From: Hexactinellida sp. DTS-2022 | Taxonomy: Eukaryota; Porifera; Hexactinellida | NCBI GenBank assembly: GCA_028753945.1 | Contig: JAPNXP010000002.1 | Location: 744,001 to 808,000 of the forward strand | Direction: 5' to 3' | Length of the DNA stretch: 64,000 nt | Part shown: piece after piece, positions 1 to 28,400 of the stretch | How positions within the stretch are numbered: position 1 is the stretch's first letter | How the letters are laid out: each line of letters opens with the position of its first letter | Notes under the pieces: generated by a model | Seen by the model: the letters and a program-made list of their open reading frames with translations, nothing else | What the model was told of the DNA's origin: nothing | Database searches by the model: none | Position numbers and translations under genes: made by a program

Positions 1-1030
1 AATACCTCCGTTTGTGTTGACGGTTGAATCTAAGGGCTACTCTTCAAGATGCCAGCCTGTCGCTACAATAGGAACACCGGAATTAAGGTGTCAGTATCCG
101 CAGGGAATAGCTTATGACAGCATAGACAATGCTGTGTACATATTAGATAACACTTCCTGTAAGCTATATTCCTATTCCATCGACAGTAAAGCTGTACGTG
201 AAGGGAACTTCGTCGGTTTCACATCCACTTTTGAAGGAGAAGTTAAAGTACTGTCTTACGATGATATAATCTTGCATACTAAGAAAAAATATCCACCGAA
301 AATTCAAAAACAGCCTATATCCTATCCTATTCCCATTGACTATTATGGACCTAATAGGGATTCAATTCTACAGCCCTGCGGTATAGAGTTCAATGACAAC
401 AAACTCTATGTGAGTGCTGTGTCTCGTATCACCCACACTTTTGATATTATAGCGCGTATCAGTTTTACACATGATAATTATTACAAGCATATTCAATGGG
501 CTGGTTATTTCGGTAAGCATGGTACCGAGGAGGGAGAAATGAACACCCCCAGAGGGCTAGCGTTTTCAGATTCCCACCTGTACGTGTGTGACTCCTTTAA
601 TAACAGAATTAATGTGTACTTTAACCAGTCTATTGTACGGACATTCTCACACAGCTGTCTCTACCGACCTCTTGATGTTAAAACTGATAAGAGCAAAATA
701 TTCGTTCTAAACAGCAAACCTCCTTTCGTAATAGAATTCCATCACACAGGAATCCTTACCAATACATACCTAAGTACCGATATCGTATCTAGGTTTGCTC
801 CCTCCTTCTTCTGCATAGACACGTCAGGTCGCTTCCTAATCTCGGACGCTAGGCTCCCCTACGTGTACGTGCTCAGCAGAGACGCTAGCATGAAGAGAGC
901 TCTGACTGACCGGCTGGAGCTGCGACACGGAGAGGAGAGACAGGTGGAACCGAGAGGAGTCTGTATCGACACACAGGGGAGAGTGTATGTAGTCTGCAAC
1001 TACAAACAGGCCATGCTACAGATATTCTGA
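1..1030 (+). CDS. NHL-repeat beta-propeller protein, 5' end outside window
   Basis: The frame is open from the first bases of the window (it reads I-P-P-F-V-L before the first GTG), so this is the C-terminal part of a longer gene and no start codon is visible. About 340 residues remain. They contain repeated hydrophobic blades of the NHL type: 'PQGIAYDSIDNAVYILD', 'PRGLAFSDSHLYVCDSFNNR' and the final 'PRGVCIDTQGRVYVV'. The protein ends right after the last blade (MLQIF, stop at 1028-1030). NHL propellers occur at the C-terminus of TRIM-NHL ubiquitin ligases and in other scaffold or RNA-binding proteins. No RING, B-box or coiled coil is in view, so the subfamily cannot be named. No intron is evident in the visible part. 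Confidence 0.85.
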   Translation, partial: IPPFVLTVESKGYSSRCQPVATIGTPELRCQYPQGIAYDSIDNAVYILDNTSCKLYSYSIDSKAVREGNFVGFTSTFEGEVKVLSYDDIILHTKKKYPPKIQKQPISYPIPIDYYGPNRDSILQPCGIEFNDNKLYVSAVSRITHTFDIIARISFTHDNYYKHIQWAGYFGKHGTEEGEMNTPRGLAFSDSHLYVCDSFNNRINVYFNQSIVRTFSHSCLYRPLDVKTDKSKIFVLNSKPPFVIEFHHTGILTNTYLSTDIVSRFAPSFFCIDTSGRFLISDARLPYVYVLSRDASMKRALTDRLELRHGEERQVEPRGVCIDTQGRVYVVCNYKQAMLQIF

Positions 1031-1039
1031 CCTATTGTA

Positions 1040-1330
1040 TACCTATAGAGTAAATAGTTGTTGTATCAACCCCGCTATCATTTATTTGTATACTTTATGT
1101 TATAACTATTTGGTTTTGTTATTTTCTCAACCTATCTCATTTATTTGTATACTTTATAGAGTAACTAGTTGTTGTTGTTGTTTCAGCCTCTCTCAAATTT
1201 ATTTTTGTATTATTTTTGTAACTAGTTTGTCTCAATCTCTCTGTCATTATTTATATACTTATTAGTCTTATATCAACTATTTTTGTTGTTGTTGACTCAA
1301 CTTCGTCATTTATTTGTATACGTACTTTCT
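1040..1330. repeat. degenerate tandem repeat, about 60-bp unit, about 5 copies
   Basis: The 3' flank of the NHL gene repeats a unit of roughly 50-65 bases made of 'GAGTAACTAGTTGTTGTT', a TCAACCTCTC-type block and 'CATTTATTTGTATACTTT'. Copies start near 1040, 1096, 1155, 1215 and 1262 and are imperfect. An open frame crosses it (1035-1265) but is low-complexity and starts at a non-ATG codon. Confidence 0.6.
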
Positions 1331-2351: not shown

Positions 2352-3316
2352 ATGATACTGAAAAAGCGCTGTTTTTTAAACCGCAGATATTTATACTATT
2401 TGGCCTCCCTTCCCCACATTATCACTCTACTCCTTATTGATTTGTACACCTTTCATTTAATCCGGTCTTTAATTGGAAGCGCTCTTATACACTGTCTACC
2501 TCGTTACGCTGAACTTATTCAAACTATTTGTTCAGTTATTATCCGCGTTTTTCCAGCTTGTAATCTTCACAACAATTCTGTTAATTCTTCTATTACAGAT
2601 CCTCCTATTAGCCATCGATCCCTATTCGTATTGTGTTGCAAACTCGAGTGTGTACACATAAACTCGACCGATGATCTCTTTGAAGACATATTCCTAGTTA
2701 CTGCTAATATAACATTTTCTTTCCTGTCATTTGGGTCAATATATTTCTTGTACGTCAATTCTTGTATAATCAGAGAACTTAATTTCAATGTGACTAAGCG
2801 GATTTCATTAAATTCGATTAAAATTCAACTTCCAACAGGCAGGAATTCCTAAAAGTAGACGTTGCGCTCGACCAACTACAGATCGTACTCACTGCTCCTA
2901 ACCCTAAGTCATCTGGTCAGCTATTCGTTAGGCTAAAGGATTATGTATATGCTAAGGAGTTAACTGAAGTGAGGGCGTTCGGCTATACAGAGGGTAGTTT
3001 TGAAAAGTTAAATTCGTATTTAGGTGAGCAGAAAGTGCATATATTGGTGATTGAAAATAGTCATTTATTTTCTCTCATGGCGAAGAATTCTACCCTTCTG
3101 AAACACTGTAAATTGCTTGGCTGTGATGAGCTCTACGGGAGTTTCTATTCAAAACAAGTACCAACAACAATAGCTAACTGTTTTGGCAAGCTTTATTTAC
3201 TACGAGTATTTGGGCTAACTCTTGTTTCTATTTATCTGATTATTAGTGTTTTGTTGATGTCCGCGAGTATTATATCACTCAACGCGAAACTAACCAAATT
3301 CAGTGATAGCTACTGA
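2352..3316 (+). CDS. hypothetical multi-pass membrane protein (two-exon model)
   Basis: I do not recognise this protein. The proposed model joins 2352-2789 to 2843-3316 through a 53-bp intron (GTGACT...GGCAG), giving 303 residues. It has an N-terminal hydrophobic segment (YLYYLASLPHIITLLLIDLY), a second one ending the first exon (ANITFSFLSFGSIYFL), a soluble stretch of about 120 residues and a C-terminal membrane segment (LYLLRVFGLTLVSIYLIISV). The joint keeps one open frame and drops the stop-ridden bases between the two halves, but the donor is weak. ATG 2352 is the first in frame; an upstream exon is possible. The layout (membrane segments, soluble lobe, last membrane helix) loosely recalls ligand-gated channel lobes, but no diagnostic motif is visible. 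A decayed gene is the alternative. Confidence 0.35.
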
Positions 3317-3836: not shown

Positions 3837-5822
3837 ATGTCTTTGACGAATCCAATCCAAAGTAGTCTAGTTAGCCTCATAACAGAGCATAAAGTAGAGA
3901 TTGAAGATATTCCAGATTTCTATCTCCATTCCTTCCCTTATCTATTGGGAAGAGAGAATTTGGTTCTAGAAGGTTTCCCATCTGATCTGACTATTAAATT
4001 ACTCGATTTATTTGTGCTGGAACAAGCAAAGTATTTCCAAACTACAAAAAATCTCACTCTTGTTTTCTTTGGTGAGAATAGTAAAGAGATTTCCATAATA
4101 TCTTCCTTAGAACCGCTCACATTAATCCCTAGTTCCCCTGTGATAGAACTAACTGTTGAGAATCTCAAGGCGCTAATGGGAGCCACCAGCTGTAAAGATA
4201 TTTCTAATTTCAAAGATTTTTCAGTCACACTAGTTCTATTCCTGATAACTGAAGTGATTTCCGATTTAGTATTTCCGCCCGATTGGCAGATTGTTGTTAT
4301 ATCGCGTGACAAGTTTGAGGGCCCTTGTAAGAATAAGTCTGTTGGCTTTCTAAAAATCGCGAAAAGTGATGACGGAATGAAAATTGAGAGATTACAATCC
4401 GAGTTTCAAAATAGTGACACTTCTGATTTAACTAACAAATCTGAAAAGGTTAAAAACAGGAATAACAGTGAAACTATCGAAATTCTTAAATCAGCACAGA
4501 TGATCTGTAAAAACCATGGATACGCCATTGACCTTAACGATGTTTTGTTGCCTTCATTGATATACACTTTATTGGGAGAGAATGTGATTATGCACACGTA
4601 TAGCGAAATGGACTTTATTCAACTGGTGTCTATACTAGCTTGTGAGAATGAATTAGAACAAATTAATATTGGAAATCTCTATATTTGTATAAATAGCTCT
4701 GAAGACCGAAATAATTTATCAAGCATCATGCCTTCACTGGAATTTAGCAAATACAATATATTAGAAGCAACGAAAGAGGGTTCTTGTAAGAACTTTTTAA
4801 TTACATTACATGAGCTATACTCCTTAAAATTCTCTAAGAATATCCATGGTCTAGTAGCAATCCTATCTTCAGTGCCTAGGGACCTTACCAAAGCACTAGC
4901 TAGTATACCCAATGGTTTTACCTTACTGCTTGGCACTGCTTGTTATTCTAGTGAGCTGCTTATTATTATGCCCAGGTCTCGGTTCATTTTGCTCTCAGGC
5001 TACCCTATACGCCCCATACTATGTGTCGGCTATAAATCTGAAGAATGCCAGTTAGTTAACCTATCAGCTTTGCCTTCTGTTGCATTAATGAAGCCAACTT
5101 CGCACCAGAAATCGATACGAAAACTTAAGCAGGGATCGACTAAGTCTAAGGTTAAATCTAAAATTGAGCCGATTAAATCTAAAATTGGGTCGATACCTCT
5201 CTTCCCTATAGAGAACACCTTACAACTGGAGGAACATGCTAACTTCCTATTAGCAGCTCTGTTAAAATCTAACTGTAATATTTTGATAAACTACGTATCT
5301 TCTTTTGATCCGCAAACATACTTGAACCATTTATTAACCGTAGTCGATTTGAAAAGCAAAACTTTACAAGCGATCATTCACGGGGATGTCTCTTCTATTA
5401 ACATTGTATTTGAGAAGTTTTGTATAGCGAATAGGGACACAAGTTATGTAGCATTCTATTTCGCCGGCGGAGAAACTTCCTCTCTTAAAGCTCTGCTAAT
5501 CAGCGATAAAATACAGATTCTGTTTATCCCAACTGGTGAACTGATGGCAGCTATTCGCTCCGGTGTTATTGCATTGGAATGTAAAGTATTAATGTGTCTA
5601 TCGGTTGGTAACAACAGCCAACCTCTCCCGTTAAAAACTCTGTCAAATATGCATAAGCAAACTGGGGTAAAATCTCAGATTGTGCTAGTTAGTAGAGATG
5701 AGTTGGAAATAGATTCAATAATGGAATTAATTCCTCGTCCGTTCTACTTTGTACAAGAGTCGAGTGATCTAGAAAAGGAAAGATTCAATGTAACCTATTG
5801 TAATTATTCTATGAGTTTTTGA
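3837..5822 (+). CDS. degenerate DEAD-box-like module protein, array gene 1 (661 aa)
   Basis: Intronless ATG-to-stop frame. It contains about three copies of the array module: residues ~8-175 (opens SSLVSLITEHK), ~215-420 (opens SAQMICKNHG) and ~440-661. Between modules 2 and 3 is a short basic linker with a repeated K-S-K-(I/V) motif. Each module follows the order of a DEAD-box first RecA domain: a helical 'LL.G.N.(I/V)(I/L)' start where the P-loop would be, alternating hydrophobic strands, then a strand such as 'RFILLSGYPIRP' or 'SIMELIPRPFYFV' at the place of the SAT motif and following strand. No Walker A (GxxxxGKS/T) or DEAD box survives, so ATPase activity is not expected. The last module ends with the same kind of C-terminal strand pair as array genes 2 and 3. 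The function is unknown; the relationship is inferred from pattern, not from a search. Confidence 0.75.
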   Translation: MSLTNPIQSSLVSLITEHKVEIEDIPDFYLHSFPYLLGRENLVLEGFPSDLTIKLLDLFVLEQAKYFQTTKNLTLVFFGENSKEISIISSLEPLTLIPSSPVIELTVENLKALMGATSCKDISNFKDFSVTLVLFLITEVISDLVFPPDWQIVVISRDKFEGPCKNKSVGFLKIAKSDDGMKIERLQSEFQNSDTSDLTNKSEKVKNRNNSETIEILKSAQMICKNHGYAIDLNDVLLPSLIYTLLGENVIMHTYSEMDFIQLVSILACENELEQINIGNLYICINSSEDRNNLSSIMPSLEFSKYNILEATKEGSCKNFLITLHELYSLKFSKNIHGLVAILSSVPRDLTKALASIPNGFTLLLGTACYSSELLIIMPRSRFILLSGYPIRPILCVGYKSEECQLVNLSALPSVALMKPTSHQKSIRKLKQGSTKSKVKSKIEPIKSKIGSIPLFPIENTLQLEEHANFLLAALLKSNCNILINYVSSFDPQTYLNHLLTVVDLKSKTLQAIIHGDVSSINIVFEKFCIANRDTSYVAFYFAGGETSSLKALLISDKIQILFIPTGELMAAIRSGVIALECKVLMCLSVGNNSQPLPLKTLSNMHKQTGVKSQIVLVSRDELEIDSIMELIPRPFYFVQESSDLEKERFNVTYCNYSMSF

Positions 5823-5946
5823 ATAGTTTTAGTAAATTCTGGGTAAATGATTATATCTTAGTTTATTCTTATAAACACGTATCCACTTATGTTAAACTTG
5901 AATATAATTAATTCCTTTTCTCCACATTAGTTACTACGGATTTGGA

Positions 5947-8900
5947 ATGGCCAGCTGGGAAGATGGTTGGGATTCCGAAAACGATTTATGGGACACTAAC
6001 CCTTCTACATTCCATACACCACACAACGTATCCAAGGATGAAACTAACATGATTAAGTACAGCAATAAACATTCTGTAAATTTGCCTCACATGAAGTCTC
6101 TATGTGAATTTATATTTAAGTATTCTAAAGAGGAACGTTCGCTATTAATTTCAGAAAATTCTCTCTCAATTCGCATTTGTTTACTGGAATGCATCATGTC
6201 GCCCTTTCTGATAAATTCTAATAAAACCGTGTTTATCCACATTTCCGAGTTTCTACCAATTATAACATCGACTCTTGACTTCAAGTGTTCTCCCCTATTC
6301 GGGGGCACATTTGCTAACTTCTCTATTAGCAACAGTAAGAAGATATTCTCAGTTTCTTACAAAGATTATTCTTACTTGGAATACGAAGTAATACCTAGTT
6401 TAGGGGATGATAAAATCCTGTTTATTTATTTAGGAAATAATCTATTAAATTCCTCTCTATTGCCAGGGTTTAAGCATATACAGAATCTAATTCTCTCTCT
6501 CAAGTTTCTAACAAACGATACAATCAAATCTCACTACCCATACACACACGTGTACAGGGATGAGTTGTATAATCTCTGTATAGAACACCACAATAATGTA
6601 TCCTATAATAAAGACGAAGTTTTAAGTTCGCAACAGTCTCCACTTATTCCCAAACCAATTATATCCACTACCGATCCGTTACTTGATAGACTGGTCACCA
6701 AACACAATGCTACGCAATACAAGAGTGAGGTAGAATACCTAATTAATATTGTATTGCAATGTATAGAGAGGAGAGCCTCATTAGTTGTAGATGGGTTCTT
6801 TACAAGTATACTGACTTGTATGTTGGATTATGTTATTATGAGCACGGTAGAAATAGCAACTGGATCGTGTATTATTATTGATTATTCTAATTCAATGGCT
6901 GAACAAATTAGATCGTTAGAAATTATGGGAAAAGAATGTGATATCAACTCTTCGAGAAAAGTTATACTTGCACACTTAAGGGAATTTAGTGATTATAACA
7001 TTTTGTATAAAAGTTGTATGCTTATTAGCTATACATCAGATGGATGTAAATTACCTAAATTGCCTTTGTTTAATGGCCCATTTCTATCAATTTCACCTAG
7101 TAAGATAAGTGATAAACATATTTCCAAAGTCTCGAGACCGTTTTTACATATACACTACGTGAAGAATAATAATAAGATAGTTTGTACACGGTGCAATGGC
7201 TTTGATTTGGATGTCGATGTAAAGATGCCTGCTGATAAATTAATCGGAGATTTGCCTTTTAATTCCTACGGAAATGAATTTACATCCGAAAATAAACCAT
7301 CGAACTCTACAGAAAGTTTACTGACTCGACTAACACAAAAATTTAATTGTGATCTCAGGTTTATTTCAACTCTCTGTTCCATTCTTTCATATTTACTTGA
7401 GAAAGGAGATTCTGTGATTATGGATAACTTTTCTATCGAACAATTGGCTTGTTTGCTTGATTTTGTTATTGCGAATAGAATTAATAACAATTTTCCACTA
7501 ATTTTTTGTGATACGAAATTGCTCGATTCAACTCTATCATTATTAGATGTAGTACAGTCAAGCCAGTACTTAGTTGTCGATTCAAACTTCCCTTTGCACT
7601 CAAATAACAAAGTTCTATTTCTGGATGACATGAAAGGATTAAATTTTTACCAAAAACTAAAAACACAAAAGTGGTTAAACCCATCATACCTACTGATTAA
7701 GTTTTCTTCTCAGACGGATCAATTAGATCTCATGTTTTCACATTCCAATTGCCAGATCCTATGCCTCACTGTTGCTACAGTCGAACAGTCTATTAAAGAC
7801 TTAATACTGAGATCCTACATCAATATCAGACATACTAAACAGAATGATTTCGAGGTTAATGACTTTAGATATAAAGTTCCTACTCCTTTATCCGTAATAG
7901 ATAACATCCCTAATGATACACCGATATATTCAAGTTATTGTAAAACAGATAGTGATACCAATGGAAATGAAGAATCACTTGATTACCCTACAATATCCTC
8001 AACCGATCAGTTACTGTACAGATTGGCTATTAAGCATGATGTATTTAGGTTCAAGAGTGTATTAGAATACATAATTGGAATTGTACTGGAATGTATAGCA
8101 ATGGGAGCCTCAGTGGCTGTAGATGGGTTTAATATGAGTGCACTCAATTGTATGTTAGACTATGTTATTATGACGAGAGTGAGGCATGCTACACAGCTAT
8201 GCACTGTTGTAGAATATACCGGTTCAATTTCAAAAGAATTAGAAACTCTAGATATTGTGAAAACTAAAGACTATGCTAGAGTAAGGAATTTAATTTACAC
8301 ACAGAAAAAAGTGTTATTTTCTCGATTGAAGAGCTCAGATTCTCATCTCCTAAGCACTCTTCCTGACGATTGTCTGTTCGTTATTTATTCCAAGTCTGGC
8401 TGTAATTTCAAATATCTTTCTTTGGTTGGCTGTCCTTTCCTTACACTCTCACCAAAGAAATTAGGCGAATCTCTGCTCGCAAGGATAAATAGGCCATTTT
8501 TGCATGTGAGAATTAAAGAGCTTACTAATAATGTAGTTTGTACTCTTAGGCATGTATTCGGGAATAACCAAAATATTAATCCAATCGAACGAAGTTTTGA
8601 TATCGAGATGCAACCTAGATTATCTCCAGCAGACCAACACGAATCAGCTGTTCCAGTAGATTCTGTTCCTCCCGAAATGGCCCAATCGAAATCCCCAGAT
8701 TATTTACTCTCTCAACTAACTACAAAGTATAAATGTAATCTTGAATTCACCTCGAGTCTCTGTACAACTCTGGCAGATTTTCTCCATAACGGAAAATCTG
8801 TAATTGTAGACAAGTTCTCACTGCCCCAGTTAGCTTGTTTGCTTGATTTCGTTATTTCAGACAGATTAATAAATGGCTCCACTAACAAAATAATTATCTA

Positions 8901-11900
8901 TTGCTACAAAAAAACTTTCAAATCAACTCTTCAATATTTGGATGTAGTACTTTGTAATCAATACCAAATTATTGACGAAAACCTTTCCTTCAACCCAGTT
9001 ACAAGAGTGCTGATAAGTCATTTCGAAAGTAAGCGTTTCTATAGAGATCTGAATAGACTCTTGGAGTTAGACCGATCTTGTCTCTTTGTAAATCTTGATA
9101 AAAATGGTTCAAATCTTCCTTTACTTTTCTCACTTACCAATTGTCAGATCCTAGGTCTTTGTGAGAGCGCATTAAAAAAGTTTAAAATAAAGACAATACT
9201 AAGACCCTTCATTAATATCAGGCATACTTCAATGAATACTTTTGAAGTTAATGACTCTGATCAGCTTAAAATTCCTACTGTATTAATTCCCCCAAACAAA
9301 AACAAAAGTACCATACAACCAGAGAAATACAGACACGAATACCTCACTCAACAGAATTATACATCTCTTGACATTAAAAATAGCTCTGAAATTAACTCTC
9401 TATTTCTCCATAAACAGAACCCTATTTCTAACCTAATTAATCAGCTGTTCGACAAGCATAACATTACACTACTAACAGAGCTCCCATCAGATCTATACAA
9501 CACATTGTACACACTCCTATTAAACAGAAGGAATCTGGCAATTGACGGATTCTCTGTGACATATGTCTGTCCGTTATTTAGCATATATGCGTTAGAATGT
9601 AAATCCTTGGGCACTCCAGTGAGTATTTGCTATGGAAAAGTCACAATAGTATTACTGAATCAGTTCAAATATATCTCTGTAATCCCGACTGACTCAATAC
9701 TACATACACTAGCTACAAATACAGATACTAACCATTTATGGTTGTTCATTGGGCTGGATAATACACTGTTGTCTCAATTAATCCCATTTATTAAGATTCC
9801 ACATCAGAGCGTGTTTCTGCTATCCCATGGATTCCCATATCTGTTAGAACAAGCGCACGTTCCTATCACCAGAGTATATAAGCGGTCTGACTGTATTAAT
9901 ATTCGTTCTTACAATTCACAGCTGACTAGTTTAATGCCTGAAAATGTGAATACTTTCTATAGAGATTCGCTTGAAATTACGTCAGAATGTGTTCAAACAC
10001 AATCTGGTATTTCTGTGGACATTATACCAGCGACTTACACTGCAATTACAACTCAGCAAGAGTCTAATAATCAGAATATATTTTTAGATACAAAGGAACT
10101 GATTCTCCCTAATCAAACTGATAATTCTTGTATTTCTATGAATGCATTAGATTCCGTTTTAGAATATGCGTCTTTAGACTTAATAGAAATTGGACATAAC
10201 TCATTTCAAGATAATAGCCAACGAGTCAATAGTTCCTTTCTTGGTAAAAATTGCACAACTCTTTTGTCCGAAATAGTTACTGAAAGTGCTCATATTGAAT
10301 TTAATGTAGACTTAACGAATAACGAATTGTATTCTAACATGCAAACGCTTGATAGCGCTGATTCTAATGAAGTTGAAAATAGCTATAGTATTGAAATTAT
10401 AGCAAATCCTAATTTTACAAGAGAACTGATGACAAATCATGAATATCTAACTACTCTGAATGGAATTAACCAAGATTTGATTACCGCACCTCCACCAATA
10501 GACACAGCAACAGAATATAATGACGAACTTGTTATTACCGGAAATGCGATCTCAGAATTAGAATCAATCAAATCATTCGACACGAGCACTCAACCTCCTA
10601 TCCGGTATGGAAATTTATCTTATGAATCAGACAATACAATTAATATAGATACACCTAATACCTCAAATAACCTCTGGGCCACAGACCTTATAGCAGAACA
10701 GGTCTCAAATGAAATATCAGATTTATACTGTCCTCCTATAGAATTACCTATCTTACTACCAGATAGTAAAACACCAGAATTCAATTCTTTATTAACTTCT
10801 GACTTAATTACTTCACCAGTTTTGAATCCAGCTGAGTTTAATACTGAGTTATTTAGTAATGCAAATGCTCTTCTTATACCAGGATTGGAAGAAAATACAA
10901 ATATAATGACAGAATCAGAAACTAACTCCGAGTTAATATCTCCTATCCAACACATAACTACAGACCTAATAACCGAACAGGTCTCAAATGAAATTTCCGA
11001 GTTATATTGTCCTCCTATAGAAATACCTATCTTACTACCAGATAGTAAAGCTAACGAATTCAGTTCTTTATTAACTTCTGACTTAGTTACTTCACCAGTT
11101 AAGAACACAGACACAAGAATCGAACAGGTTATTACTCCCGAACTTTCCAATATAGAATCATTCAATTCGCCTATCACAAATACCCAATTTTCCCCGTTAG
11201 AAACCACTAATACACTACCAGAGTCAGAACACTTTACGGATATCTCAGAACAGCTAGAACCTAACCCATTGACTACACCTACTACAACAGAACTCCCTCA
11301 TCCTATAATAACCCCTCTACCTCTACCTGATAGTACAGTGTCTGAATCAGATCCTATTCCTGGCTGTGACAGTATTATCTCTCCAGCCGTGGAAACATAC
11401 ACAGAGACTGAGTTTAATTCTGAGTTATTTAGTAGTAATGCAGATGTTCTTATACCAGGGTTAGAAGAAAATACAAACATAATGATAAAATCAGAAATTA
11501 ACTCAGAACTAATATCTCCTATCCAACACATAACTACAGATCTAATAACCGAACAGGTCTCAAATGAAATTTCAGACTTATACCCTACACCACTACTAGA
11601 TAGTATAGCACCCGATTCTTGTTCCTTTGGCTCAAAACAAGACAAGAAGCAGTCTCCCTCTCAGCTAGGCCTGCAGCTGATAACCTCCCCCCTACACTCA
11701 GGCATACACACAGTCCTACACAGCAGTGACTCCACATACTATACCCACATCCTCCATCGCATAGCTAGCGTGCTAGACTCTACAACTAATTCCCTACAGA
11801 TAGTGCTCACTTCACAGAGCCCTGAGATCTGCTCTCAAATATTGAGTCTCGCATCCTCGCACTTACACACTGGTACCAACGGGTTCCTGTACAAAACAGG

Positions 11901-12231
11901 CCCGATTGATCAGTTATCTAATTTCATTGTTAAACAGAAAATACAGATTCTATCGATTCCTGTGTCTCCACTTATTTCTCTCGTACAGTCAAATCCGACT
12001 TTATTTATCGAGAATAAAATCCTTGTATATGTTGAAGATAACACAGCATGTTCTATTTCAGAGTTGTTAGCAAAAAGCATAGCCAAACAATACATATTCA
12101 TTTTATCTGACAACAAAGCATTTTCTACACTTTTACATTTATTTCCTACACCATATTGTGAAATAAAATTTCATCAATTTTCCGCTGAAACTGAAAGATA
12201 CACTGTTGAATTTAATTTTCCTTCTCTGTAG
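5947..12231 (+). CDS. giant degenerate DEAD-box-like module protein, array gene 2 (2094 aa)
   Basis: One uninterrupted 6.3-kb frame beginning 124 bp after array gene 1. The N-terminus (MASWEDGWDSENDLWD) is acidic and Trp-rich. Modules: 0 at residues ~50-200, A1 ~243-425, B1 ~457-650, A2 ~687-880, B2 ~918-1112, C ~1158-1330 and a C-terminal module ~1898-2094. A1 resembles A2 (CMLDYVIM; PFL(S/T)(I/L)SP; RPFLH) and B1 resembles B2 (LACLLDFVI; NCQIL; INIRHT; FEVND), so a two-module block was duplicated. Residues ~1330-1900 form a Ser/Thr/Glu/Asn-rich, probably disordered region with long repeats. No P-loop or DEAD motif is visible in any module. The strand at the SAT position reads 'FLLSHGFPYLL' in module C, which resembles 'LLFSATFP' of DEAD proteins. 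A scaffold role is plausible but unproven. Confidence 0.8.
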   Translation: MASWEDGWDSENDLWDTNPSTFHTPHNVSKDETNMIKYSNKHSVNLPHMKSLCEFIFKYSKEERSLLISENSLSIRICLLECIMSPFLINSNKTVFIHISEFLPIITSTLDFKCSPLFGGTFANFSISNSKKIFSVSYKDYSYLEYEVIPSLGDDKILFIYLGNNLLNSSLLPGFKHIQNLILSLKFLTNDTIKSHYPYTHVYRDELYNLCIEHHNNVSYNKDEVLSSQQSPLIPKPIISTTDPLLDRLVTKHNATQYKSEVEYLINIVLQCIERRASLVVDGFFTSILTCMLDYVIMSTVEIATGSCIIIDYSNSMAEQIRSLEIMGKECDINSSRKVILAHLREFSDYNILYKSCMLISYTSDGCKLPKLPLFNGPFLSISPSKISDKHISKVSRPFLHIHYVKNNNKIVCTRCNGFDLDVDVKMPADKLIGDLPFNSYGNEFTSENKPSNSTESLLTRLTQKFNCDLRFISTLCSILSYLLEKGDSVIMDNFSIEQLACLLDFVIANRINNNFPLIFCDTKLLDSTLSLLDVVQSSQYLVVDSNFPLHSNNKVLFLDDMKGLNFYQKLKTQKWLNPSYLLIKFSSQTDQLDLMFSHSNCQILCLTVATVEQSIKDLILRSYINIRHTKQNDFEVNDFRYKVPTPLSVIDNIPNDTPIYSSYCKTDSDTNGNEESLDYPTISSTDQLLYRLAIKHDVFRFKSVLEYIIGIVLECIAMGASVAVDGFNMSALNCMLDYVIMTRVRHATQLCTVVEYTGSISKELETLDIVKTKDYARVRNLIYTQKKVLFSRLKSSDSHLLSTLPDDCLFVIYSKSGCNFKYLSLVGCPFLTLSPKKLGESLLARINRPFLHVRIKELTNNVVCTLRHVFGNNQNINPIERSFDIEMQPRLSPADQHESAVPVDSVPPEMAQSKSPDYLLSQLTTKYKCNLEFTSSLCTTLADFLHNGKSVIVDKFSLPQLACLLDFVISDRLINGSTNKIIIYCYKKTFKSTLQYLDVVLCNQYQIIDENLSFNPVTRVLISHFESKRFYRDLNRLLELDRSCLFVNLDKNGSNLPLLFSLTNCQILGLCESALKKFKIKTILRPFINIRHTSMNTFEVNDSDQLKIPTVLIPPNKNKSTIQPEKYRHEYLTQQNYTSLDIKNSSEINSLFLHKQNPISNLINQLFDKHNITLLTELPSDLYNTLYTLLLNRRNLAIDGFSVTYVCPLFSIYALECKSLGTPVSICYGKVTIVLLNQFKYISVIPTDSILHTLATNTDTNHLWLFIGLDNTLLSQLIPFIKIPHQSVFLLSHGFPYLLEQAHVPITRVYKRSDCINIRSYNSQLTSLMPENVNTFYRDSLEITSECVQTQSGISVDIIPATYTAITTQQESNNQNIFLDTKELILPNQTDNSCISMNALDSVLEYASLDLIEIGHNSFQDNSQRVNSSFLGKNCTTLLSEIVTESAHIEFNVDLTNNELYSNMQTLDSADSNEVENSYSIEIIANPNFTRELMTNHEYLTTLNGINQDLITAPPPIDTATEYNDELVITGNAISELESIKSFDTSTQPPIRYGNLSYESDNTINIDTPNTSNNLWATDLIAEQVSNEISDLYCPPIELPILLPDSKTPEFNSLLTSDLITSPVLNPAEFNTELFSNANALLIPGLEENTNIMTESETNSELISPIQHITTDLITEQVSNEISELYCPPIEIPILLPDSKANEFSSLLTSDLVTSPVKNTDTRIEQVITPELSNIESFNSPITNTQFSPLETTNTLPESEHFTDISEQLEPNPLTTPTTTELPHPIITPLPLPDSTVSESDPIPGCDSIISPAVETYTETEFNSELFSSNADVLIPGLEENTNIMIKSEINSELISPIQHITTDLITEQVSNEISDLYPTPLLDSIAPDSCSFGSKQDKKQSPSQLGLQLITSPLHSGIHTVLHSSDSTYYTHILHRIASVLDSTTNSLQIVLTSQSPEICSQILSLASSHLHTGTNGFLYKTGPIDQLSNFIVKQKIQILSIPVSPLISLVQSNPTLFIENKILVYVEDNTACSISELLAKSIAKQYIFILSDNKAFSTLLHLFPTPYCEIKFHQFSAETERYTVEFNFPSL
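10678..11590 (+). repeat. coding repeats in the disordered region of array gene 2
   Basis: The protein motif 'EQVSNEIS(D/E)LYCPP' followed by 'ILLPDSK' occurs near 10695 and 10975, and the first part again near 11550. 'GLEENTNIM.(K/E)SE.NSELIS' occurs near 10885 and 11460. DNA identity between copies is high, which suggests recent unequal exchange inside the gene. Confidence 0.85.
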
Positions 12232-12390
12232 TATTTCGTATGTATTTATCTAATTATTTTGTAGCTATTAAAATACTTTCCTTGGAATTTATAACTTACC
12301 TAGAAACTGATGTATTTATATAATTTATTCAAATAATTCTTTATATTTCTTTATAATTCCATTTTTTATCCTTGCTCTAGTTTCACTATT

Positions 12391-15300
12391 ATGTCAGCTG
12401 ATAAAGATTTCTCTGCACAAGATGTTCCAATTATTATTGAATTAGAGAATAGTAAGTCTTCTCTCCTGGAGCAAACATTAGGTAATATCTTGCCTGAAAA
12501 TACCACAGAAAAATTAGGTAGCAGTTGTAATATTATGGAAGATAAATTGACCTCAGCCGAACCTAAATCCTTACCAGAGGCTTTCAAGCGAGTGAAATCA
12601 TTCCAGGAGCTGAGACTTAGCACAGAATTAACCAGCAGTCTATTTGCTAACGGCTATGAGAAACTAACCGAAACGCAGGCCCGTATAATACTCCCGTTAA
12701 TCCAAGGGAACTCTATGCTAATAGAGTCTGAACCTGGGAGTGGGAAAATGACAGCGCTCTCTATACTGTTAATACAGAGGTGTGTCCCACGTAATGTCCA
12801 TCTCCAGGGCCTGGTTATAACCGGCAGTAAGCAGTACAGTTCTGCTGTTGAGCTAGTAGTTAGTTTGCTATCAGAGGAAGTGACTGCCATTAATCTTGAT
12901 GACCTAGAAGATACCCAACCTGGGGAAATAGCTGATCACCAGTTTATGGTGGGGAGTGAGGCGAGCTTTGGATTACTGTGTGGTGTTATTGGTAGCATTA
13001 GGCGGCCTATTATGCTCTGTCTCTACAATGTAAATGTAGAGTCGGGTGCTTTAATGGAGAAGTTAACTTTAAATTTATCTAAGTTCAATCAAATTGTGGT
13101 AATGAGGGACCAGAATGTAACTCTTGACTACGCGCTAATTCCAAAGCTCCTTGACAACAAAACACTATATTACTCCAATAATATGCCAGTGTCACATGTT
13201 AACAGTATAGTAGCCATTTTGGTAGAGGCTAATAAACCTCTATCAAAAGTTAATTCTTCAACAAACCCAATTTCGAAACCGCAACAAGACCAGAGTTCAG
13301 AACCAATAAAAGAAGGCCCGGATTTAGAAATATTCCGCAATCTCAATTCTGGAGAGAAACTAATAGATTTATTCCAAAGACACAACCTTAGCTTGAGTGT
13401 CCCTACTTTCTACATATTCGTATTCCACTATCTCTTGAAAGGTGTGAGTGTAATACAAACCGGTTATAAGGCACCAGAGCGCACCAACTTGCTCTGTTTG
13501 GTGGCCAAAGAGTTCGACAGACATTTGACTACTCCGGTGCAAGTTGTGATATGTTATGACGGCAAGGAACTTGACGGTTCTAAGCTGTTGACAAATCAAT
13601 CTGTTTATACGCTTAAAGATGAGGAGTCTCTTAATGATATTCCTAGCAGCAAAACTATCGTAATAGCTTCCAGCGCTAAAACTATATCCGTTATAAAATC
13701 ATTCCCGAATTTATTTAAGTCTACAGGAAGAATCATAGTGTTCTTCAACACGCAACCGGATAGGTTCAGAGGAATGTGTAGTCTCCTACCAGACGGAGTG
13801 CTATTCCTTGCGATGCTCACTTGCCAAATCAGCTCTGTATCAGGCGACATTAAAACGCCCTTTATTCATGTCTCAAAGCAAGCGAATAGCTTACAAATAC
13901 ATCCGTACTTAGGGGCCAAGGTGACTCCTGATGAACTAGCGTGTCTAGACAAACTCTCACAGATTAAATCCAATCCTCCTATGACCGCTAATTCCAATAC
14001 AAACACCAGAACATTTCCCCCAGTTAAGCATCAAATGCCTGCTAGGATTTGGCAACAGAGGGATAGAGAGAGACAGGAGGATTCACACACGATGCCTAAC
14101 ATGGTAAGCGCTAATTTGCTACGTACTATCTCTGCTAAACACGGCATAGATCCCAAGGGCGTTCTGCCATTCTATCCAGAGGTATTCTCATTCTCCATCA
14201 GAGCTGATAACATCCTTATGGTCGGGTTTAATTGCATAGAGTTCTCTCCTATTGTTAACATTGTTGTGTTGGAGAGAGTTAATTCTGGTGCGGAGCCAGG
14301 CTGCCAGGTTTTGCTGTATTACGACTCCAGCGCTGAGCAGAGTTTAGTTGCACATCCTAACTGCAAGCGTATGCTGGCTTCTAACGAGGATTCTATATTG
14401 GACGTGTCTCCATTGGTTTGTGTGAACAGTATTACTGATATAGTGCGTCTGTACAAGCGACAGAACAAACAGTTTGTCACCTCTCCAAAGCTTGTTGTGC
14501 TAGTTGGCGTGAGACTCGACGAGTGTATCGAACTCCTGGCAGACCAAATGATGTGTCAGTTTATGTTTGTTCTCAGCGATTCTCCTTCAGACGAGTATCT
14601 CGATAATCTCCCGACCACTTTTGTCAGATTCCTTAACAATAGTGGGTCAGTTAGAATTGAGAAAGTTGGGAGAGACGAGTCTCTTTCTACTCACGGAACA
14701 ACAGAGGAATCCTCTCCCGATTTAGCAGAACAAACATCAGAAGATAAATCAGCTGATCATTCAATGGCTACGCCTCAAATGCACTCCACTCCCTTAGAGG
14801 GGCAGGAAACCTCTCTCGTTGAAGAGATTCTCAAGAGACACGAAACGAACACAGCTCAAAACCCTGTATTCTTCAGAACAGTCCTATCCCATACGCTCAG
14901 TGGAGATAACATTGTTATCAACGAGTTCACTAAGGAGTGTATTACACAGCTGGTAACAATGCTATACAGTGATTACTGTGTTAATGTGCCGAAAGGTGCG
15001 TACACATTGTTCTGTTTGGGATCTAGAATCACAGAACTACTCATGCCTTCGTTTAGGTGCCCCTCCTCTTTATGGCTGCCGGACAATAAACCGATTATAT
15101 CTCTCCCAGATTCTGAGAGGGAAATACACTTCCTGACCATATCCAGGCTGACTAGCATTCTTAATACCGAGTTTAGTTGTCTGGTCGCCCGTCCTTGGCT
15201 TATCGTGTTCATCGGTCTCTCTCACGACGAAACTCAAGCCTGCATTCCTTTCATCCCCTTGTCAAACCAGTATTTGTTCATATTAAGCATAGACCATCCT

Positions 15301-16134
15301 CAGTTCCAGAAGTTCATGTCCGCTCCATATATAATCGTAACCAAGACTCGCTCTAAGCCTATTGTAACCGAGTGGGTGCACCTGGGTAGAATGAAGTCAT
15401 TCCTATCTGTCTACAAACAGGCTAGTAATTACACTGGAGACTCACTTGATTCCGTGGCTAGGGTAACGCCTGTAGAAAACTCGATTGAAACACCGTCTGT
15501 GGAATCCGTAGTAGAAAAGCCCGCTCCATCTCGTACGCTCCGAGATGTCTCTTCTTCCATTCTGAATTCCGGCAGGCATATACTGCTGCAGGCTAGTAGG
15601 GAGTCAGGGAAATCAACTCTAGCCTTTGAGTATGCATTGTACAATATCGATAGGAGTAAGATGTGTATTCAGGCTATATTTAGTACGCCGACCCTGTTCA
15701 CAAGTGTTAAGCTGTTCACACTTCTCAACCAGTATATGGTTCGGAATAATGACATCGGGGTTAATGCTTTCTTGCACGCGAAAGGTGATTCCGCTCAATT
15801 ATCAAGTTACGTTTCGAAGAATAAATTTCAGTTACTGATCACAACTAATAAATTCTTAGATAAAGTGTTGAGCGAATCTGGGATTGTTAGTGAGTGTGGC
15901 CTGATTGTTTTTGATGAGTTGTATGACAACGATTTCAAAGAACAAGCTAATACTATTCTACCAAATTTAATAAGCAATTCAATCCCACGTGGCATTCAAT
16001 GTGTATTTATAACAACCCCTTTAGAAAACACGGGAAAATTTCTACAAATTATTCCAGTGCCTTTATTTCATATCCAACAGATTCGTACACAAAACTCAAC
16101 CACTACTAGCTACTCAATTGACTGTTATTTTTGA
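12391..16134 (+). CDS. DEAD-box-like multi-module protein with remnant P-loops, array gene 3 (1247 aa)
   Basis: Intronless, starting 159 bp after array gene 2. This member shows the ancestry. Residues ~71-290 carry a Q-motif-like start (FQELRLSTELTSSLFANGY, then TETQARIILPLIQG) and a Walker A-like 'ESEPGSGKMTAL' at ~112-122, but 'VVMRDQN' near residue 238 stands where DEAD is expected. Modules 2 (~319-505), 3 (~570-770) and 4 (~808-1000) are degenerate like those in array genes 1 and 2. The C-terminal module (~1050-1247) keeps 'ASRESGKSTL' (Walker A, ~1068-1077), 'STPTLF' (motif Ia place), 'ITTNKFLDKVL' (motif Ib place), 'VFDELYDND' (DEAD changed to DELY, ~1173-1181) and 'FITTP' (SAT place). 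The second RecA domain of a helicase (HRxGRxxR) is absent. ATP binding by the terminal modules is possible; unwinding is unlikely. Confidence 0.8.
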   Translation: MSADKDFSAQDVPIIIELENSKSSLLEQTLGNILPENTTEKLGSSCNIMEDKLTSAEPKSLPEAFKRVKSFQELRLSTELTSSLFANGYEKLTETQARIILPLIQGNSMLIESEPGSGKMTALSILLIQRCVPRNVHLQGLVITGSKQYSSAVELVVSLLSEEVTAINLDDLEDTQPGEIADHQFMVGSEASFGLLCGVIGSIRRPIMLCLYNVNVESGALMEKLTLNLSKFNQIVVMRDQNVTLDYALIPKLLDNKTLYYSNNMPVSHVNSIVAILVEANKPLSKVNSSTNPISKPQQDQSSEPIKEGPDLEIFRNLNSGEKLIDLFQRHNLSLSVPTFYIFVFHYLLKGVSVIQTGYKAPERTNLLCLVAKEFDRHLTTPVQVVICYDGKELDGSKLLTNQSVYTLKDEESLNDIPSSKTIVIASSAKTISVIKSFPNLFKSTGRIIVFFNTQPDRFRGMCSLLPDGVLFLAMLTCQISSVSGDIKTPFIHVSKQANSLQIHPYLGAKVTPDELACLDKLSQIKSNPPMTANSNTNTRTFPPVKHQMPARIWQQRDRERQEDSHTMPNMVSANLLRTISAKHGIDPKGVLPFYPEVFSFSIRADNILMVGFNCIEFSPIVNIVVLERVNSGAEPGCQVLLYYDSSAEQSLVAHPNCKRMLASNEDSILDVSPLVCVNSITDIVRLYKRQNKQFVTSPKLVVLVGVRLDECIELLADQMMCQFMFVLSDSPSDEYLDNLPTTFVRFLNNSGSVRIEKVGRDESLSTHGTTEESSPDLAEQTSEDKSADHSMATPQMHSTPLEGQETSLVEEILKRHETNTAQNPVFFRTVLSHTLSGDNIVINEFTKECITQLVTMLYSDYCVNVPKGAYTLFCLGSRITELLMPSFRCPSSLWLPDNKPIISLPDSEREIHFLTISRLTSILNTEFSCLVARPWLIVFIGLSHDETQACIPFIPLSNQYLFILSIDHPQFQKFMSAPYIIVTKTRSKPIVTEWVHLGRMKSFLSVYKQASNYTGDSLDSVARVTPVENSIETPSVESVVEKPAPSRTLRDVSSSILNSGRHILLQASRESGKSTLAFEYALYNIDRSKMCIQAIFSTPTLFTSVKLFTLLNQYMVRNNDIGVNAFLHAKGDSAQLSSYVSKNKFQLLITTNKFLDKVLSESGIVSECGLIVFDELYDNDFKEQANTILPNLISNSIPRGIQCVFITTPLENTGKFLQIIPVPLFHIQQIRTQNSTTTSYSIDCYF

Positions 16135-19293: not shown

Positions 19294-20112
19294 ATGATGA
19301 AGCTCCAAGTTGACAAATTGCAAGAATTCAGTTCGGCCTTTGAATTCCATGTAAAATCGTATGAAAATTATTTGAAACTAGTATCTGCCTCTCAACAATC
19401 CTTCCTTCAAGATTTCCTCGATCCATGCAGAGAATTGCAATATCCCAGTGAGAATATGTATGCTCCTCATATCCATAGGGCAAAAAGTATATTCCATAAA
19501 TGCAAAGGGAGAGTCAGTTCTCTTTTATCCGAATTATTGCCGATGCGGTGTCGACGAACAAAACTGGGAAAAAGTTTGAAGAGGGAGTTAGCTGAGATCA
19601 ATGAATTGGTTAAAGGAATAATTGTTCCTAAGGACGGTGATGATTGTATTCTTGATTCGGACAGAAAAAACCTAGAGAGATGTAATTATCATTTAAAGGA
19701 ATTTAACAACTTACTCATCAAATTTCCAACCCCACAAGAAGACAAACCGACAAATATATTGAAAAATAGAGAACTAATAACAAATGCTCATAACGATTAT
19801 CGGCTTCTATCGGTTCTACAATTTTTGACTGTCCCTCTAATCCAAGAGACAATACACTTTCTCAAGCACCCACAAATCATTAGAGTTCTTAAAACTGGAT
19901 TTTGCCGGTTTGCATATCCAGGGGAAAGGGGAATGTGTTCCCTCCCCTGGACAGCTAAATTTCCCAGGAAACCTCCGGACCCAAAAGTGTTTAGTTTTCC
20001 CCTCCCCCAGGCTTTCTTTCATCCTGGGAAAATTTACCGAGCTCCTAGATTTAGTTTGAGCGGGTTCAGTTTTCATTTTGTTCGCCTATATTTGTCATCT
20101 TGTATTAATTAA
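19294..20112 (+). CDS. unknown duplicated gene, copy 1 (272 aa)
   Basis: I recognise no domain. The ATG-initiated frame is intact and closely similar over its whole length to the 286-aa frame at 26205-27065. Residues 1-195 look helical and charged ([35 protein letters not shown]). The last ~75 residues are Pro/Phe/Lys-rich ([20 protein letters not shown]) and lie on DNA with an internal inverted repeat, so the C-terminus may be repeat-derived. Differences between copies include a 6-base in-frame indel and many substitutions but no stop or frameshift, which argues that both have been coding. The copies use different stops because copy 1 has a 4-base insertion near its end. Confidence 0.6.
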   Translation: MMKLQVDKLQEFSSAFEFHVKSYENYLKLVSASQQSFLQDFLDPCRELQYPSENMYAPHIHRAKSIFHKCKGRVSSLLSELLPMRCRRTKLGKSLKRELAEINELVKGIIVPKDGDDCILDSDRKNLERCNYHLKEFNNLLIKFPTPQEDKPTNILKNRELITNAHNDYRLLSVLQFLTVPLIQETIHFLKHPQIIRVLKTGFCRFAYPGERGMCSLPWTAKFPRKPPDPKVFSFPLPQAFFHPGKIYRAPRFSLSGFSFHFVRLYLSSCIN

Positions 20113-25400: not shown

Positions 25401-28400
25401 GCACTCAAATATAATTGCCTACCCCGATGTAGAAAGTTTTACTTAATTAATATGCTTCGAAATATTTCTACTCATTTGTCTGCAATGTTACTACTCTCGG
25501 TGTTTTGGTGATGTAGATAATTCAAACAATTTTTCTCCTATCAGTGACATCACTTGTGACCACTTACTGTTATATTAATTGTGTTGCATTTTCGCTTTAG
25601 ATATGTTTAGTTAGGAAATTATATTTTCTTTTACAATGAACGATTGACATTGGCGTATCTTTCTGAATATGTAAGCTCAAAGATTCGGTTTCACTTATCT
25701 GAAATTAGTAATCCTAATTTTGTTATTAGAATAGTTCAGAGAAAGGAAAATTCGCCCACTCGCATGTTATATGCTCTTTGGAGAATCTTTGATGAGTTTG
25801 CAAGGTTGTCAACATTTATTATATGTTAGGCAACCTTACTGTATCGAATACGGACGAACAAAACACATCTCACGTATCGAAATGTCGGTATCCCCACAAT
25901 ACAGGATGTATAATATATTTAACTTGAATTGATTATAATAATATGATAGAAATTCTACTTGAAAAAGTTATTATCAATAATTAATGCGATGTACTTTCTA
26001 CTGAATACTAATAGAAACTCGATACGTATAGCGGTAAAGGTATAACTTAATATATTTCTACTGATATTAAGTGGTCAATATTTCTACTGTGCTGCAAGGT
26101 AGAAATATATTTCTACCTTGTTCAAACAGTTATATATTTAGTATATATATATATACTTATATATATAATTTGAAAAATTAAGGTATATTTATTACCACGT
26201 TAAGATGAAGCCCCCCCAATTTAACGAATTGAAAGAATTCAGTTCGGCATTTGAATTCCATGTAAAATCGTATGAAAAGTATTTGAAACTAATATCTGCT
26301 TCTGAACAATCCTTGCTTCAAGATTTCCTCGATCCATGCAGAGAATTGCAATATCCCAGTGAGAAAATGTATGCTCCTCATATCCATTGGGCAAAAAGAG
26401 TATTCCATAAATGCAAAGGGAGAGTCAGTTCTCTTTTATCCGAATTATTGCTAAAGCTGTGTCAACAAACAAAACTAGGAAACAGTTTGAAGAAAGAGTT
26501 AGCTGAGATCAATGAATTAATTAAAGGTATAATTGTTCCTAAGGACGGTAATGATTGTATTATTGATTTGGACAGAGAAAACCTAGAGAGATGTAATTTT
26601 CATTTAAAGGAATTTAACAACTTACTCATCAAATTTCCAAACCCACAAGAAGACAAACCGACAAATATATTGATATCTAAAGAACAAATGACAAATGCTC
26701 ATAACGATTATCGGAATCTATCTTTTCTACAATTCTTGAATGTCCCAGACCCTCTAATCCAAGTCACAATACACTTTCTCAAGCACCCACAAATCATTAG
26801 AGTTCTTAAAACTGGATTTTCCCGGTATGCATATCCAGTGGACAGGGGAATGTGTACCCTCCCCTGGACAGCTAAATTTCCCAGGAAACCTCCGGACCCA
26901 AAAGTGTTTAGTTATCCCCTCCCCCAGGCTTTCTTTCATCCTGGGAAAATTTACCGCGCTCCTAGATTTTGTTTGAGCGGGTTCAGTTTTCATATTGTAC
27001 GCCTATATTTGTCATCTTGTATTAAGTCTATGAGAGCATCTCTCGATATTGTATGCCTAGACTAGATTTTTGTACGCCTAGATTAAAATCCTGCCAAATT
27101 ACGCTCCTTTAACCGCGCCCAGCACGCCTGGAACACCCTGCTCTCTCCTCATCGAATATTTGTGGAACCGCCACTGTACTTATCCCAGCGAATACGTAGT
27201 ATATTTTGTTGTAAATTTAATTACACAATTTAATTGTAATTACATAACGAAATCAAAATATATATCATTTAGCTACATATTACAGGGGGGGGGTCAATCG
27301 GCAGATACTTGAACCATAGCCAAGTGGTGGGTCCCATTCTGAAAGGTACATGAAGAACCTTGTACTTCATGGAGGGTACGAATCAATATTATTGCGAAAT
27401 TTTGCAGCAAATTATCAGGAATTTACACTAAAGGTATTTTTAATAGTATTTTGTAACACCTAAAGGTTGCGGACTAATTAAAATTTAAACAGATAAAAAT
27501 TATTTTTGGGCTAAAAATGCTCGAAGGAGGACTTCGTAAACTAGATGTAAATACCTTCGTATTAATCCTTGCTAATCTGGTCACAGTCATTGTGGCAAAT
27601 ACTGTAAAAGCAAGAAGTACTTTTGTACTTTTTGTACTTTGTAAAGCAAGAAGTACTTACTACTTTTTGTACTTTGTAAAGCAAGAAGTGCGAAGTACTT
27701 TGTACTTCGCTAGGGGGTATGCCCTAAAAAATTATTTTCCATCAAGTAACCTATGGGCTAATTTAGTACGCTGTTGGTTGATCCCCCCAGCATATTAATC
27801 ACTCGGTTTTTTGATAAAAAAAGAACAATGAAACTTTTTGGTTTTGTTAATAGCAGTAATATTATAATAATTTTTTGAACCAACTTTTTATTATAATTAA
27901 TAGATACTGTATAATTAAATGACTTTCGTAGATCTCCGTTAGTACGTGTTTGACTCATTATAACTACTCCGGCTTATTTCGTATTTTCTTTCAAAGAAAA
28001 CAATTGTGTACGAAACGAGTATCACTCTATTCAGTTTATCAATAGGAGATTGAAATCAATTAACTATTGTGCCAATATTGTGATTACTAATAATATGATT
28101 AATTCTTAAAAAGCATTCCAGTTTAATATGTTTTACAATTAACAATCACAGTTAATCTGTTTCAAATTCCTAACTACAGCTTGATGCTTCATCAGCTCGT
28201 AGACTAACTTCATTTGACTGAGTTTGCTCGTTTTTTCTATGTAGTGATAGATTTTGTTTGGAACCGATTCGATAAATTTCGAAAAGTAATCCATAATGTC
28301 GCGATAATCTGCGTTTTTTGTCGCATGGCTGTATTTCTGTGCCAGATTATAATCTTCAGTTTGTGTGAAGTACAATAAGACTGAGGGGGTGTGTCCTAAC

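What the first reader, a model, noticed from the sequence alone, without database searches (positions are those of the whole stretch)
3837..16134. Three-gene array of a DEAD-box-derived tandem-module protein family
Three adjacent intronless genes (661, 2094, 1247 aa) consist of about 15 repeats of one ~180-residue module. Seen: each module opens with LL..L..(K/R)H-like helices, then 'LL.G.N.(I/V)', a Leu-rich strand-helix stretch, and closes with a strand resembling the SAT region ('FLLSHGFPYLL', 'LFILSIDHPQF', 'FLSISPSKI') plus 'RPF..I'. Established: the DEAD-box RecA1 order is Q motif, Walker A, Ia, Ib, DEAD, SAT. Inference: the modules are RecA1 domains that lost ATPase residues and were multiplied into scaffolds. 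I know of no described protein with this architecture.
Basis: partly seen in the sequence, partly recalled or inferred. Interest (0 to 1): 0.88.

Follow-up and report, generated by a model that had tools for sequence, protein, structure and literature searches.

The report
Glass-sponge tandem broken-helicase-domain proteins
Three neighbouring genes, probably of a glass sponge, encode proteins built from about fifteen copies of what looks like one half of an RNA helicase, mostly with the motor parts lost, and a sister gene joins that half-helicase to a domain known from germ-granule proteins, which suggests a new kind of RNA-granule scaffold.

Summary
Three adjacent single-frame genes (661, 2094, 1247 aa) carry 3+7+5 = 15 modules of about 170-225 residues. 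Orthologues (42-89% identity; the two named ones from the glass sponge Oopsacas minuta) keep the linkage. Module profiles resemble each other above reversed decoys (27 of 105 pairs against 2 of 105 at P<0.01). The end modules of gene 3 are DEAD-box RecA1 domains; the C-terminal modules of genes 1 and 2 are their relatives; M3.3, and more weakly M3.4 and M1.2, match SF2 RecA1 lobes in predicted structure. P2's internal modules reach RecA1 only through other modules. No Helicase_C was found. Gene 3 has not lost all ATPase residues. New: a paralogue 180 kb away joins a LOTUS domain to DEAD-related modules, both over Pfam cut-offs; a second LOTUS gene has a DEAD match below cut-off. Some LOTUS domains recruit the helicase Vasa to germ granules. 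I read the family as non-catalytic RNP scaffolds; function is inferred, not shown.

The parts
3837..5822 (+). P1 gene, 661 aa, one open frame, three modules
   Evidence: 7 orthologues, 42-82% identity
3843..4382 (+). module M1.1 (residues 3-182)
   Evidence: hhalign to M3.2 P 4e-5, M2.6 4e-4, M3.3 7e-4
4464..5111 (+). module M1.2 (210-425)
5199..5819 (+). module M1.3 (455-661), C-terminal class
   Evidence: M2.7 P 6e-10, M3.5 P 8e-7; Q2 of the LOTUS gene P 1e-9
5947..12231 (+). P2 gene, 2094 aa, one open frame, seven modules and a long linker
   Evidence: 3 orthologues
6034..6582 (+). module M2.1 (30-212), weakest of P2
   Evidence: M2.5 P 9e-5; two sequences only
6664..7176 (+). module M2.2 (240-410)
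   Evidence: M2.4 P 6e-47
7309..7896 (+). module M2.3 (455-650)
   Evidence: M2.5 P 2e-47
7993..8556 (+). module M2.4 (683-870)
   Evidence: M2.5 P 3e-15
8689..9264 (+). module M2.5 (915-1106)
   Evidence: M2.3 P 2e-47
9394..9921 (+). module M2.6 (1150-1325)
   Evidence: M3.4 P 1e-4, M3.3 4e-4
9922..11637 (+). P2 linker, polar, imperfect internal repeats seen by eye; length varies between orthologues
   Evidence: alignment; Tandem Repeats Finder lists nothing here
11638..12228 (+). module M2.7 (1898-2094), C-terminal class, no Walker A seen
   Evidence: M1.3 P 6e-10, M3.5 P 9e-8
12391..16134 (+). P3 gene, 1247 aa, one open frame, five modules
   Evidence: 7 orthologues, 47-89% identity
12568..13245 (+). 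module M3.1 (60-285): DEAD-box RecA1; Q-motif region and GSGK kept, no DEAD motif seen
   Evidence: PDB eIF4A E 5e-8; DEAD profile P 2e-12
13333..13905 (+). module M3.2 (315-505); QTGYK, invariant in 8 of 8, where the P-loop would lie
   Evidence: M1.1 P 4e-5
14098..14685 (+). module M3.3 (570-765)
14797..15390 (+). module M3.4 (803-1000)
15523..16131 (+). module M3.5 (1045-1247): DEAD-box RecA1 with GKS and FDEL
   Evidence: Pfam DEAD best stretch 1056-1208; DEAD profile P 8e-10
2852..3197 (+). partial copy of the last module of the LOTUS paralogue, in a segmental duplication that also holds the NHL gene at 1-1098
   Evidence: 92.8% and 89.8% DNA identity to L042

Best explanation
A gene family, known here from glass sponges, made by serial duplication of the first RecA-like domain (RecA1) of a DEAD-box RNA helicase, without the second domain. 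Most copies lost the nucleotide-binding residues; at most the end modules of gene 3 and the last module of the LOTUS paralogue could still bind ATP. Without RecA2 and its arginine finger (recalled) none can be a complete helicase motor. Most likely the modules, joined by linkers, act as a multivalent scaffold in RNA-protein granules: the LOTUS-bearing paralogue would anchor or stimulate a Vasa-type helicase, and P1-P3 would supply extra binding modules. Shown: anatomy, module homology, conservation, linkage, no Helicase_C found. Inferred: no catalysis, scaffold role, granule and germline setting.
For: Pfam DEAD in P3 and in 8 of 8 family members. Module homology above decoys. SF2 RecA1 structural matches for M3.3, M3.4 and M1.2. 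No Helicase_C in P1-P3, in Q or in the scanned frame of W, nor among the families listed for P1 and P3 orthologues. Paralogue Q (L042; C11:562934-565015) has OST-HTH 35.7 bits (cut-off 23.8) and DEAD 27.2 bits (cut-off 26) in one open frame; its last module matches M3.5 at P 3e-20, M1.3 at 1e-9, M2.7 at 1e-6, while 0 of 70 decoys of that run reached P<0.01. Q's LOTUS matches, in the PDB, FI02030p (8e-10), TDRD7 (1e-6) and TDRD5 (4e-4); [quoted passage not shown] The face that binds ATP and RNA in RecA1 is not better conserved than the opposite face (0.597 against 0.594, permutation p 0.47), as expected if that chemistry is gone.
Against: P1-P3 have no LOTUS, Tudor or other RNP domain in Pfam; the granule link is by paralogy only. 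In the same paper MARF1-type LOTUS domains lack the Vasa-binding extension, and which type Q has was not tested. P1 and P2 profiles find no helicase in the PDB by sequence and none in Pfam (P2 orthologues not scanned). Direct hhalign to DEAD fails for 13 of 15 modules. Mean pLDDT is 47 and 37. Links between the internal and C-terminal module classes (best P 0.0013) do not beat the best decoy (0.0011). Conserved Walker residues in M3.5 (7 of 8) suggest that ATP binding may matter there. The conservation test uses strand limits from low-confidence models. No expression data.
Confidence: 0.5

Rival explanations
1. The arrays are ATP-switch or RNA-clamp proteins: M3.1 and M3.5 (and the last module of the LOTUS paralogue) still bind ATP and control the array or bind RNA, possibly pairing in trans with the RecA2 of another helicase.
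For: GK[S/T] and FDEL kept in 7 of 8 P3 family members, lysine kept in 8 of 8 N-terminal modules; paralogue Q has a Walker A-like AGPSKGKTS and CDELYG.
Against: In the N-terminal module M or L follows the lysine in 8 of 8 and no DEAD motif is seen; P0010 lost the C-terminal Walker A; ligand face not preferentially conserved.
Confidence: 0.2
2. The internal modules are RecA-like or Rossmann-like domains of another origin that were fused to DEAD RecA1 ends, not degenerate DEAD domains.
For: No direct profile link of the internal modules to DEAD (best P 0.04, while one module scored P 0.023 against the reversed DEAD profile); Foldseek's first 21 rows for the P3 model are KaiC, another RecA-fold protein.
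Against: The 50 VIA-align rows for each model are SF2 helicases as I recognise them; Foldseek's first row for the P1 model is the DEAD-box protein DDX21, though at E 1.4e-3; the C-terminal class shows a decay series (M3.5 and Q2 with Walker A, M1.3 and M2.7 without).
Confidence: 0.2
3. The genes are decaying or mobile-element-derived sequence without function.
For: Partial copies of the LOTUS paralogue's 3' half lie at about 14 places on C1, C4, C11, C12 and C14 (rows, overlapping rows merged by me), many with stops, two of them near a DDE transposase-like ORF (by eye).
Against: Proteins of like length with 42-89% identity and kept linkage in other genomes; P3 searched in its own genome finds one full-length copy, itself.
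Confidence: 0.05

Closest known systems
DEAD-box RNA helicases (eIF4A-type), Pfam DEAD PF00270
   Same: RecA1 domain and, in the N-terminal module of gene 3, Q-motif region and Walker lysine; M3.1 sits beside an eIF4A-like own-genome sequence in a tree (support 87/59, long branch) and eIF4A is its best PDB match
   Different: no Helicase_C found, most motifs lost, tandem RecA1-like copies
LOTUS (OST-HTH) germ-granule proteins: Oskar, TDRD5, TDRD7, MARF1
   Same: paralogue Q has a LOTUS domain that matches TDRD7 and TDRD5 structures by sequence
   Different: in Q Pfam finds DEAD and no Tudor; P1-P3 have no LOTUS. In the OST-HTH paper PMC2848206 a term search found 'helicase' once (for Vasa) and 'DEAD' not at all
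Brr2 and other SF2 helicases with a second, inactive cassette (recalled)
   Same: reuse of an inactive helicase part as a binding platform
   Different: there a whole RecA1-RecA2 cassette is kept (recalled); here only RecA1-like domains, many times

Membership tests
DEAD-box RNA helicase | RecA1 domain recognisable by Pfam DEAD | tested here: met
   P3 only: 55.3 bits, cut-off 26, two stretches; 8 of 8 family members. P1 and P2: 0 families
DEAD-box RNA helicase | RecA2 domain (Helicase_C) | tested here: not met
   not among Pfam matches at E up to 1 of P1-P3, Q or the scanned frame of W
DEAD-box RNA helicase | complete Walker A and DEAD motif in one domain | tested here: not met
   M3.5: GKS and FDEL, not DEAD; M3.1: GK followed by M/L, no DEAD motif seen; none seen by eye in the other modules
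SF2 RecA1 fold, M3.3 | structure match over most of the domain | tested here: met
SF2 RecA1 fold, M3.4 and M1.2 | structure match over most of the domain | tested here: inconclusive
SF2 RecA1 fold, M2.1-M2.6 | structure match over most of the domain | not tested
   not folded; both prediction jobs went to P3 and P1
LOTUS germ-granule protein (paralogue Q) | OST-HTH domain above Pfam cut-off | tested here: met
   35.7 bits, cut-off 23.8
LOTUS germ-granule protein (P1-P3) | OST-HTH domain | tested here: not met
   no match at E up to 1
LOTUS germ-granule protein (paralogue Q) | Vasa binding through the C-terminal extension of the LOTUS domain | not testable with these tools
   a match to a TDRD5 structure (3s93) covers query 15-95, which may include the extension; binding untested

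The most novel reading that the evidence does not exclude
Glass sponges evolved a new class of germ-granule or syncytial RNP scaffold: arrays of RecA1 half-helicases, with a sister protein that adds a Vasa-recruiting LOTUS domain. The spare RecA1 modules act as decoys or docking partners for the RecA2 or cofactors of working DEAD-box helicases and so set where Vasa or eIF4A acts in the multinucleate tissue.
Probability: 0.15. Interest if true: 0.8.

Novelty: new variant of a known kind. Interest (0 to 1): 0.6.

Why it matters
Pseudoenzyme repeats built from one lobe of a helicase would show that half of a two-lobe motor can be reused as a repeated building block. The LOTUS fusion gives an entry to germ-granule biology of glass sponges, animals with syncytial tissue: none of the ten papers listed on LOTUS, Vasa, Piwi and Tudor mentions them (0 occurrences). 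P1-P3 and Q make a testable set of four genes on one chromosome.

Tried and rejected
Direct hhalign of each module to an own-genome DEAD profile: only M3.1 and M3.5 of 15 match, so direct sequence proof for the internal modules was given up. Profile search of the P1 and P2 families in the PDB: no helicase. Weak Pfam names for P1 orthologues (VPS9 and four others, at most 2 of 8 members each) rejected as chance. The ligand-face conservation test came out negative. Foldseek's KaiC rows for P3 have TM-scores of about 0.1-0.2 over a largely low-confidence model, and I do not read them as kinship beyond the RecA fold; Foldseek gave 44 matches at E<=0.001 for P3 and 0 for P1. Vasa as the source helicase: not supported; eIF4A-like sequences are nearer, with modest support. 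Kinship of gene W's RecA1-like modules with the arrays: weak (best P 0.0073 to M3.4; to DEAD 0.005 and 0.038), so W is only a candidate member. Extension of the module to the linker strand before RecA2 was seen by eye and not confirmed. A viral or phage origin was not tested. Print was searched (titles and starts of abstracts of the listed papers seen); no listing shows tandem RecA1 arrays or a LOTUS-DEAD fusion. A term search of the O. minuta genome paper PMC10280926 found 'helicase', 'DEAD', 'Vasa' and 'LOD99' 0 times. Most subscription journals are not in that library.
Full report
Setting. The window is C11:744001-808000 of a 112.4 Mb, 18-contig genome. The two named orthologues of genes 1 and 3 are from the glass sponge Oopsacas minuta (LOD99_11675, LOD99_11677), and other window genes look animal (by eye), so I take it for a hexactinellid; no call names the species.

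Observation. Three adjacent plus-strand ORFs of 661, 2094 and 1247 aa, each one open frame. At E<=0.01 P3 has 7 orthologues (47-89% identity), P1 has 7 (42-82%) and P2 has 3 (48-71%); the searches for P1 and P2 scored only the candidates that share most words. Most are of like length; exceptions are a P2 orthologue of 1411 aa and a P1 orthologue of 596 aa. Their exon structure is not known to me. Going by equal contig lengths, P1 and P3 orthologues share a contig in 5 of 7 cases, and P2 and P3 orthologues in 3 of 3. This speaks for selection and a conserved cluster.

Modules. I cut 15 modules by eye and compared the ortholog profiles with hhalign: 27 of 105 pairs at P<0.01 against 2 of 105 reversed decoys; 17 against 0 at P<0.001. 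There are two classes: C-terminal modules (M1.3, M2.7, M3.5) and internal modules (M1.1, M2.1-M2.6, M3.2-M3.4). P2 holds a duplicated pair, [M2.2,M2.3] and [M2.4,M2.5]. Links across the classes are weak (best P 0.0013; best decoy 0.0011). M1.2 has no partner below P 0.011. M2.1 rests on two sequences.

Catalysis. No Helicase_C was found in P1-P3, Q or the scanned frame of W. M3.1 keeps the Walker lysine in 8 of 8, but M or L follows it in 8 of 8 and no DEAD motif is seen. M3.5 keeps GK[S/T] and FDEL in 7 of 8. I see neither in the other modules. The face that binds ATP and RNA in RecA1 is no better conserved than the opposite face over five modules (M3.2-M3.5, M1.2; 0.597 against 0.594, 155 positions each, p 0.47); the strand limits come from models of low confidence. 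One exception is the QTGYK of M3.2, invariant in 8 of 8.

LOTUS paralogues. Searching the own genome with P3 gave a 695-residue open frame, Q, on the same contig, C11:562934-565015 minus, about 180 kb from P1. Pfam finds OST-HTH (35.7 bits) and DEAD (27.2 bits) in it, both over cut-off. Its last module matches M3.5 at P 3e-20, M1.3 at 1e-9 and M2.7 at 1e-6, with 0 of 70 decoys at P<0.01; its other module is weaker (M3.4, P 0.0013). The whole protein matches P3 at E 2.5e-21 and P2 at 6e-7. Its LOTUS matches FI02030p (8e-10; a Drosophila name by recall), TDRD7 (1e-6) and TDRD5 (4e-4) in the PDB; Oskar is far behind (about 1). A second gene, W (C9, L057), has two LOTUS stretches (47.2 bits) and a DEAD match below cut-off (17.3 bits, E 0.004); its modules do not link clearly to the arrays. 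Two further LOTUS genes carry Tudor domains. Partial copies of Q lie at about 14 places on C1, C4, C11, C12 and C14, one of them in the window at 2852-3197.

Function. eLOTUS domains of Oskar, TDRD5 and TDRD7 bind the C-terminal RecA domain of Vasa and stimulate it, while those of MARF1 lack the extension needed (PMC5458760: start of abstract and 12 passages). From that, and from the loss of motor parts, I infer RNP scaffolds. Nothing here shows expression, binding or location, and P1-P3 lack LOTUS, so the germ-granule step is the weakest.

Novelty. No listing of the paper searches shows tandem RecA1 arrays or LOTUS-DEAD fusions, within an open-access library only.

Noticed in passing
window 1-1098 and 2852-3197; L042 2633-3698 and 7087-7432: Segmental duplication (89.8% and 92.8% identity) holding an NHL-repeat gene and a piece of the LOTUS paralogue.
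   Followed up: partly
P2 residues 1-20, window 5947-6006: Tryptophan-acid N-terminus (MASWEDGWDSENDLWDT), similar in two orthologues; could be a short binding motif.
   Followed up: no
window 9922-11637: Long polar linker of P2 with ITTDLITEQVSNEIS-like units seen by eye; length and copy number differ between orthologues; Tandem Repeats Finder lists no array here.
   Followed up: partly
window 19294-20112 and 26205-27065: Two ORFs (272 and 286 aa) that are alike over most of their length by eye, a local gene duplication.
   Followed up: no
L043 1042-2206, L045 4717-5593: DDE transposase-like ORFs (by eye) beside partial copies of the LOTUS paralogue's last module.
   Followed up: no
L057 1258-3837: Gene W: LOTUS domains plus a weak DEAD match and, by eye, one intron before a last exon.
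   Followed up: partly
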